Part shown: piece after piece, positions 24,236-47,532 of the stretch
Layout: every line of letters begins with the position of its first letter
How positions within the stretch are numbered: position 1 is the first letter of the stretch
Assembly (NCBI GenBank): GCA_017516925.1
Contig: JAFXAQ010000007.1
Span: forward strand, 1 to 50,125
Source: Oscillospiraceae bacterium
GTDB taxonomy: Bacteria; Bacillota; Clostridia; Oscillospirales; Oscillospiraceae
Direction of reading: 5' to 3'
Length of the DNA: 50,125 nucleotides
Notes under the pieces: model-generated
What the model was told of the DNA's origin: nothing
The model's database searches: none
Seen by the model: only the letters and a program-made list of their open reading frames with translations
Made by a program: the position numbers and the translations under genes

Positions 24236-24318
24236 GCGGGCGTGGTGGAATTGGCAGACACGTTGGATTTAGGTTCCAATGGGTAACCGTGCAGGTTCAA
24301 GTCCTGTCGCCCGTACCA
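24236..24318 (+). tRNA. tRNA-Leu (anticodon UAG)
   Basis: Acceptor arms GCGGGCG and CGCCCGT (one G-T pair) close the molecule. The D-arm is GTGGAATTGGCAGACAC. The anticodon stem TTGGA/TCCAA holds the loop TTTAGGT, so the anticodon is TAG, reading CUN leucine codons. A short variable arm and a T-arm CAGGTTCAAGTCCTG follow. The discriminator A and CCA are encoded (24315-24318). Confidence 0.96.
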
Positions 24319-24345: not shown

Positions 24346-24367
24346 CAGCTATATTCGCCTCACGGCG

Positions 24368-24515
24368 AGTTATATTGGCTACGCCAGTGATATTTGCTTC
24401 GCAAGTGATATGCCTGCGGGCGTTAGGGGCGAATATAATATCACTGAAACCGCAGGTTTCAATATCACATTTTGCATAGCAAAATATATCACTCCGTTGA
24501 AGACGGAATATCACT
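24368..24515. repeat. Hairpin array built on AGTGATATT units
   Basis: Direct copies start at 24368 (AGTTATATT variant), 24386 and 24404, with an exact 18-base period. Inverted copies (AATATCACT or near) start at 24437, 24461, 24485 and 24507, 22-24 bases apart. The intervals are self-complementary: GGCTACGCC, TGCTTCGCA, GCCTGCGGGC, GAAACC-GCA-GGTTTC, TTTTGC-ATA-GCAAAA, CCGT-TGAAG-ACGG. The layout matches the array at 3977-4098. Confidence 0.88.
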
Positions 24516-36297: not shown

Positions 36298-36320
36298 AAA
36301 TAGTTTTCTCGACAAGCGGG

Positions 36321-36430
36321 CAGAGGGTCAAGAAAGCCCCAAAGACAAGCAAACGGTCGGCGTAGGCGTACATAGGTACGTTAGTCCGACCGTTTGCGCA
36401 GTAAGTCAAAACACCTTGCGACAGCAAGCT
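36321..36430 (+). ncRNA. Dispersed structured element, full copy A
   Basis: About 110 bases. The 5' part CAGAGGGTCAAGAAAGCCCC leads to a 12-base perfect stem GCAAACGGTCGG (36349-36360) / CCGACCGTTTGC (36386-36397). The stem encloses an apical palindromic hairpin CGTAC-ATAG-GTACG. The 3' part reads AAGTCAAAACACCTTG and ends in a small CTTGC-GACA-GCAAG hairpin and T5. A second copy lies at 47392-47498 on the other strand with compensatory stem changes. Whether it is an expressed RNA or a mobile hairpin repeat is not known. Confidence 0.7.
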
Positions 36431-36433
36431 TTT

Positions 36434-36500
36434 TACCCCTCATCCGTCAAAAATCAAATAGATTTTTGCCACCTTCTCCCCGGGGAGAAGGCTTTTTTGC
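36434..36500. repeat. Double-hairpin interspersed repeat
   Basis: CCCTCATCCGTC leads to AAAAATCAAATAGATTTTT and then CCTTCTCCCC-GGGGAGAAGG followed by a T run. I recall similar sequence as a common interspersed repeat of gut Clostridia. The second hairpin with TTTTTT could terminate transcription arriving from the exonuclease gene. Confidence 0.6.
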
Positions 36501-36546
36501 AACAAAATTTTGTGTTTTGATGGTTTGGGGATTTATTGATACTCTG

Positions 36547-47234: not shown

Positions 47235-47391
47235 GCACCAGAGTGCAGGAGAGCCCCAAATCGTCAAAACACAATAATATTATAGAGTGAATTGATCGTA
47301 ATTAGAAAGTCATTGCTCGACGACGAAAGAACTCTCGGAGCAAAGCGACATAGAGTTCTTAGTGCACAGCTGGCAATCCGTTAGCCAAAAC
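47235..47391. other. Non-coding region with short element copy and a hairpin
   Basis: No gene is seen. The short copy of the dispersed element lies at 47241-47274. AAGAACTCT and AGAGTTCTT form a 9-base stem with a 16-base loop at about 47327-47360. The region continues into the full element copy B at 47392 and ends at the Noc gene (47533). Confidence 0.5.
47241..47274 (+). repeat. Short copy of the dispersed element (second)
   Basis: AGCCCCAAATCGTC leads to AAAACACAA (47252-47274), identical over 23 bases with 33589-33611. Like that copy it lacks the central hairpin. Confidence 0.75.
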
Positions 47392-47498
47392 AGCTTGCTG
47401 CACAAGGTGTTTTGACTTGCTGCACAACTCGAACCTTACCGTACCTATGTACGCCGACAGGTTCGAGTTGCTTGTCTTTGGACCTCTCTTGCCCTCTG
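47392..47498 (-). ncRNA. Dispersed structured element, full copy B
   Basis: Read on the minus strand it follows copy A (36321-36430) base for base in the flanks. The central stem is different, GCAACTCGAACC / GGTTCGAGTTGT (forward arms 47460-47471 and 47424-47435), yet fully paired with one G-U. The apical GGCGTACATAGGTACG is identical. Expression is unproven. Confidence 0.7.
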
Positions 47499-47532
47499 GC
47501 CAACATATCAAGAATATTTTCCGACAACGCAT

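What the first reader, a model, noticed from the sequence alone, without database searches (positions are those of the whole stretch)
36321..36430. Dispersed ~110-bp element with a covarying 12-bp stem (two full copies, opposite strands)
Copies at 36321-36430 (plus) and 47392-47498 (minus) share nearly identical flanks and an identical apical hairpin CGTAC-ATAG-GTACG. The stem below it differs at seven of twelve positions (GCAAACGGTCGG against GCAACTCGAACC), yet every change is compensated on the other arm. That is the signature of a conserved structure, as RNA or as folded single-stranded DNA, and not of a simple sequence repeat. I do not recognise the family.
Basis: seen in the sequence. Interest (0 to 1): 0.75.

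Follow-up and report, generated by a model that had tools for sequence, protein, structure and literature searches.

The report
Folded mobile element duplicating gene terminators
The two repeats are the left halves of a roughly 220-260 base pair non-coding element from gut bacteria that is predicted to fold along its whole length, and most full-length relatives examined sit between two copies of a local, mostly terminator-like hairpin, as if they insert there and duplicate it.

Summary
A covariance model from six own-genome copies matches 24 of 101 same-genus genomes and 9 of 200 in the family. Of these, 90 carry an extra palindrome (H0) on the left; 83 of the 90 have the left flank repeated directly after the right end, against 2 of 25 without H0. 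In 79 of the 85 the repeat is a hairpin starting 0-3 nt after the element. IS1182-family transposons of the same genus have similar ends and also duplicate hairpins. One copy holds transposase and element within one hairpin pair. I read these as structured MITEs moved by IS1182-type transposases that insert at hairpins and duplicate them; published IS1272 (IS1182 family) removes its target hairpin. Against: both window copies lack H0 and duplication; no IS1182 match in the own genome; element and transposase do not co-occur above chance; the fold's role is unproven.

The parts
36321..36546 (+). Copy A, whole element (226 bp), H0-less form
   Evidence: model match 36317-36435 for its left part
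36321..36343 (+). Copy A, left strand of end helix P1
   Evidence: Fold
36349..36360 (+).
36386..36397 (+). Copy A, P2 3' arm
36405..36414 (+). Copy A, P3 5' strand (GTCAAAACAC)
   Evidence: Fold
36415..36428 (+). Copy A, terminator-like hairpin inside the element
36512..36521 (+). Copy A, P3 3' strand (GTGTTTTGAT)
   Evidence: Fold
36524..36546 (+). Copy A, right strand of end helix P1
36547..36574 (+). Terminator-like hairpin abutting the right end of copy A; no copy of it on the left
47239..47498 (-). Copy B, whole element (260 bp), H0-less form
   Evidence: model match 47387-47502 for its left part
47477..47498 (-). Copy B, left strand of end helix P1
   Evidence: Fold
47460..47471 (-). 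Copy B, P2 5' arm
47424..47435 (-). Copy B, P2 3' arm
47239..47260 (-). Copy B, right strand of end helix P1

Best explanation
The pair belongs to a family of non-autonomous mobile elements (structured MITEs) of uncultured Oscillospiraceae. Shown: most full copies carry on the left an extra palindrome (H0, CAGTCTGTCAAAAAA...TTTTTTGACAGACTG) and are flanked on both sides by copies of one locus-specific hairpin, often terminator-like, whose foot touches the right end. Shown: IS1182-family transposons of the same genus have similar ends and duplicated hairpins, and one locus holds folded element plus transposase inside a single hairpin pair. Inferred: an IS1182-type transposase, acting in trans, uses H0 and the right end as transposon ends, joins them to the 5' feet of a target hairpin, and repair duplicates the whole hairpin, so both flanks keep a terminator. 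Inferred and weakest: the fold acts at DNA level, for example by extruding P2 so that the interrupted left repeat matches the uninterrupted right repeat. The two window copies are the H0-less form, read as old copies that lost the outer end.
For: Size, fold and pairing. H0 and duplication go together: 83 of 90 with H0, 2 of 25 without. In 79 of 85 duplicated cases a hairpin starts 0-3 nt after the element; hairpin lengths 20-41; repeat length follows hairpin length, Spearman 0.81, n=77. Downstream of one gene (tsaD by my reading) in 30 same-genus loci, the hairpin is duplicated in exactly the two with an inserted element, single in 21, not detected in 7. Transposase: NF033551 379.7 bits, cut-off 270. 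Transposon ends and hairpins. Composite copy. Multi-copy, patchy spread; 5 of the 10 exact-flank own copies lie within about 50 bases of a contig end, as repeats do.
Against: Neither window copy has H0 or the duplication. No IS1182, DDE_Tnp_1 or IS30 match in the own genome (MAG 83.55% complete; other transposase families not searched there). Of 101 genomes, 24 have the element and 20 a transposase match (fragments and distant relatives included); 4 have both, about 4.8 expected, so no association. The fold is absent from the other transposon copies (one strong match, L317, and four weak ones, E 3e-4 to 1e-3, in 30 loci). 7 of 90 copies with H0 lack the duplication. In 6 of 79 the two hairpins match better inverted. 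Of nine transposons with both ends in view two have no duplication and one only an imperfect one. Empty sites are from other species, not strains. All data are assemblies; no experiment.
Confidence: 0.7

Rival explanations
1. The folded body is a structured RNA (a small RNA or 3'-end element affecting mRNA decay or termination) that hitch-hikes on IS1182 ends; covariation is kept by RNA function.
For: Covariation in P2 and paired ends also in H0-less copies; strong fold; a terminator-like hairpin inside copy A.
Against: In most full copies hairpins on both sides would stop read-through into it. No promoter-like site inside either window copy (simple scans). No Rfam family. At one locus examined only 2 of 30 genomes carry it, in opposite orientations, unlike a conserved RNA gene.
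Confidence: 0.2
2. The compensated stem changes come mainly from a mutation process acting on palindromes (template switching or conversion between arms), not from selection for a fold.
For: Flanking hairpins with reversed loops (6 of 79), a diverged but still paired hairpin pair (L046) and perfect palindromes built from half of P2 (L037, L076) show that palindromes are rewritten in these genomes.
Against: P1 and P3 strands lie up to 200 bases apart and still match their own partner better than others (P1 90 of 90 and 24 of 25, P3 108 of 115); the uneven cap of P2 stays conserved while the stem changes. Shared ancestry was not removed.
Confidence: 0.2
3. Another transposase moves it, for example an IS30/IS1630-type enzyme, and the likeness to IS1182 ends is incidental.
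For: IS1630 of Mycoplasma fermentans is named as targeting and duplicating inverted repeats of variable length (title in reference lists). Element and IS1182 matches do not co-occur above chance.
Against: No IS30 match in the own genome (not tested in others). IS1182-type transposons of the same genus have like ends and themselves duplicate hairpins; the composite copy L317.
Confidence: 0.1

Closest known systems
IS1272 / TnSha1 (IS1182 family, staphylococci; passages of PMC5678879 and PMC4923244)
   Same: IS1182-family transposase; inserts at stem-loops without sequence preference, often terminators
   Different: IS1272 is reported to remove the target stem-loop and give no target duplication; here the whole hairpin is duplicated. 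Wan et al. drew such duplication only as an alternative pathway (Fig 13 b, legend and text passages)
IS1630 (IS30 type, Mycoplasma fermentans; seen only as a cited title and as 16/23/25/26-bp duplications in passages of PMC3317919)
   Different: Other transposase family; no covarying mini-element known to me
Bacterial MITEs (passages of review PMC10969869)
   Same: Short, non-coding, multi-copy, terminal inverted repeats, target duplication, ends like those of a transposon
   Different: Whole-length covarying fold with a conserved side hairpin interrupting the left repeat; the duplication is a whole hairpin
REP sequences with RAYT (recalled, no call)
   Same: Dispersed hairpins 3' of genes
   Different: Paired transposon-like ends and hairpin duplication; RAYT not searched for

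Membership tests
MITE | Short, non-coding, many dispersed copies | tested here: met
   165-403 bp, median 221 over 115 copies; many copies in several genomes
MITE | Terminal inverted repeats | tested here: met
   Ends pair in 115 of 115 folds
MITE | Target duplication | tested here: met
   85 of 115 full copies; the two window copies: not met
MITE | Autonomous relative with the same ends | tested here: met
   Similar, not identical ends; composite copy L317; none in the own genome
MITE | Movement by that relative's transposase | not testable with these tools
   Needs an assay
IS1182 family (the partner transposon) | Transposase over the curated score | tested here: met
   379.7 against 270 bits
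IS1272-type target removal | Target hairpin deleted, no duplication | tested here: not met
   Hairpin duplicated in 83 of 90 copies with H0 and in 7 of 9 transposons, one imperfectly
IS30 / IS1630 | IS30 transposase present | tested here: not met
   Own genome only: none
Known Rfam RNA family, group II introns included | Match at gathering score | tested here: not met
   No match at either copy; copy A also permissive
REP/RAYT | Y1 tyrosine transposase linked to the repeats | not tested
   No search was made

The most novel reading that the evidence does not exclude
A self-folding nucleic-acid parasite: the P1-P2-P3 fold itself is read by the hairpin-seeking IS1182-type transposase, as extruded DNA or as a transcript, so one enzyme reads shape both in the element it moves and in the terminator it enters, and duplicates that terminator so that the host barely notices.
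Probability: 0.25. Interest if true: 0.8.

Novelty: new variant of a known kind. Interest (0 to 1): 0.57.

Why it matters
It supplies many natural examples of a hairpin-duplicating outcome in the IS1182 family, whose studied member IS1272 is reported to remove the hairpin; Wan et al. drew duplication only as an alternative pathway. It suggests how an element can enter the 3' end of genes cheaply: both sides keep a terminator. A MITE whose whole length covaries as a fold makes a question testable: does a transposase read DNA shape in the donor as well as in the target? For annotation, it warns that strong covariation in an intergenic repeat does not by itself prove a non-coding RNA.

Tried and rejected
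Rfam: nothing at the element. IS30 as mover: no match in the own genome. DDE_Tnp_1: matches in 6 of 28 handles, two of them apparently one genome (G029/G326); one hit led to L256. A transposase between left and right end in the loci then held: none found. A conserved, vertically inherited gene: rejected, since at the one locus tested 2 of 30 genomes have the element, in opposite orientations; that locus was picked because two copies shared it. 'Always between convergent genes', my first impression, was dropped: a crude longest-ORF test gave mixed orientations (whose script stopped with an error after the table) and one locus has tandem genes. Viral collection: two matches; L188 is a diverged copy beside genes that look phage-like to me (no family search). 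Alignment A1 had rows on the wrong strand and was not used. Papers: eight searches ran; the last two saw listings only; passages were read in six papers.

Rows dropped or merged: one search found 135 copies and kept 78; one search found 183 and kept 115 (both ends and enough flank; duplicates merged). The H0 rule was too loose (it flagged window copy A) and was replaced, whose numbers are quoted. The alignment uses 100 chosen sources of the loci then held, some of them sequences the model was built from. In one search the script missed the outer ends of L317 and the right ends of L328 and L329; these three were judged by eye. One search covers 31 handles, some apparently the same genome twice (G029/G326, G214/G325).

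Full report
What was checked first. Both copies exist as described. The shared flanks are far beyond chance, and the two stems differ at seven of twelve positions with each change compensated. The own genome (1.65 Mb, 67 contigs, 83.55% complete) holds ten copies with exact flanks and at least three different stems; five of these ten lie within about 50 bases of a contig end. A covariance model (R1) was built from six own-genome copies; it includes copy B and leaves out copy A. It gives 39 matches in the own genome at E<=0.1, the last dozen weak, partial or antisense.

Distribution. With R1, 24 of 101 same-genus genomes match at E<=0.001, own genome included, and 3 of the 28 high-quality ones (stricter filters). 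In the family it is 9 of 200 genomes and 6 of 106 genera.

The element is longer than the finding. Copy A is 36321-36546, copy B 47239-47498. In 115 of 115 full copies at least 8 of the first 12 bases pair with the last 16.

Covariation. On 101 distinct sequences P2 is 97.4% paired, with double-sided changes in 11 of 12 pairs; no shuffle of 500 reaches the score and slid controls stay far below (first set). The alignment was fitted to the model and leans towards it. For the other helices I compared the pairing of a copy's own strands with pairing to other copies' strands: P1 own is better in 90 of 90 copies with H0 (means -25.5 and -19.0 kcal/mol) and 24 of 25 without (-29.1 and -20.7); P3 in 108 of 115. 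This does not remove shared ancestry, and subfamilies share both ends.

The flanks. Most full copies have an extra palindrome, H0, directly left of the left end, and a hairpin special to the locus on both sides. In the final set a direct repeat of the left flank starts within 6 nt of the right end in 83 of 90 copies with H0 and 2 of 25 without. In 79 of these 85 a hairpin starts 0-3 nt after the element. Those hairpins are 20-41 long (median 29), and repeat length follows hairpin length (Spearman 0.81, n=77), which a fixed stagger would not give. Of the 79, 56 have a T-rich end like an intrinsic terminator and 32 are identical on both sides. Both window copies belong to the H0-less group; A has one terminator-like hairpin on its right, B none found.

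Occupied and empty sites. Downstream of a gene that reads as tsaD to me (no family search), in 30 same-genus loci, the hairpin after the stop codon is duplicated in two, single in 21 and not detected in seven; some of the single ones are weak, AT-rich stems. The two are the own genome, where element and hairpin repeat in tandem, and L230, which carries a different mini-element with ends of the same type. This compares species, not strains.

The likely mover. In a roe-deer MAG (L256/L298, and L317 with an identical protein) two identical 37-bp hairpins enclose the folded element, H0 and a 474-aa transposase gene. It is IS1182 family: 379.7 bits against a cut-off of 270. Relatives at E<=1e-30, fragments and proteins down to about 30% identity included, are in 25 of 136 same-genus genomes. 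The closer ones end in CAGCTTGTCAAAAAACTT and TTCTTTGACAGACTG, like H0 and the element's right end. Of nine with both ends in view, seven have a duplicated hairpin (L317, L318, L319, L322, L323, L327, L329; L322 imperfectly) and two (L328, L342) have different hairpins on the two sides (three of the nine by eye). For the two most distant long ones (L334, L337) I recognised no ends. Among 30 transposase loci R1 has one strong match, L317, and four weak ones, so the fold is not a regular part of the transposon.

What speaks against. No IS1182, DDE_Tnp_1 or IS30 match was found in the own genome. Among the 101 genomes, the 24 with the element and the 20 with one search match overlap in 4, about what chance gives. 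In 6 of 79 cases the flanking hairpins match better inverted than direct, which a plain target duplication does not explain. At two loci two species carry the element in opposite orientations: later inversion or repeated insertion, I cannot tell.

Mechanism. Shown by sequence: the ends, the fold, the flanking hairpins, the partner transposon. Inferred: the transposase joins the element's 3' ends at the 5' feet of a target hairpin and repair duplicates it; Wan et al. 2017 drew this as an alternative pathway while proposing hairpin removal for IS1272 (PMC5678879, passages; removal also in PMC4923244, passages). Inferred and weak: the role of the fold. P2 interrupts the left repeat while the right repeat runs on; if P2 is extruded, both ends have the same geometry. 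I put about 0.45 on a DNA-level role, 0.2 on an RNA role and 0.2 on mutation bias as the main cause of the compensated changes.

Known or new. Hairpin-seeking insertion is known for IS1272, and both papers cite a review by Siguier et al. for IS1182 members that target palindromes (the review itself not seen). I recall that IS catalogues list direct repeats of 0-60 bp for IS1182, so duplication in this family may already be on record without detail. Duplication of inverted repeats is in print for IS1630. I found no description of this element family, nor of a MITE that covaries over its whole length, in what the eight searches showed, which cover only the held library and were mostly seen as listings. 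Hence: a new variant of a known kind.

Noticed in passing
window 24236-24315 and 24346-24416 (+): A tRNA followed 30 bases later by an Rfam Gut-1 RNA (53.1 bits, gathering 50).
   Followed up: no
L156, L130, L106, L184 (also L038, L171): The two hairpins flanking one element match better inverted than direct, i.e. the loop is reversed (6 of 79).
   Followed up: partly
L193, about 60-460: An own-genome copy appears split inside its P2 loop by another repeat with ends GGCTGAGAGAACTCGAACC / GGTTCGAGTTCTCTCAGCC.
   Followed up: no
L230, downstream of the tsaD-like gene: A different mini-element, ending in ...TTTTCGACAGACTG, also sits between two copies of the gene's terminator hairpin.
   Followed up: partly
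L289, from about 2570 to the contig end: H0, left end and P2 run into coding sequence of another IS1182-like transposase: real junction or assembly join.
   Followed up: partly
L336, after the transposase fragment: Spaced repeats ATTTCAACCC.GCACCCC...GGGGTGCGAC, CRISPR-like to my eye, follow an IS1182-type transposase fragment.
   Followed up: no
right halves of many own-genome copies, e.g. L051, L053, L060: The variable middle often holds another repeat, GGATTGCCACAACCAGTGTTGCGACACTGGTTTCGCAATGAC.
   Followed up: no
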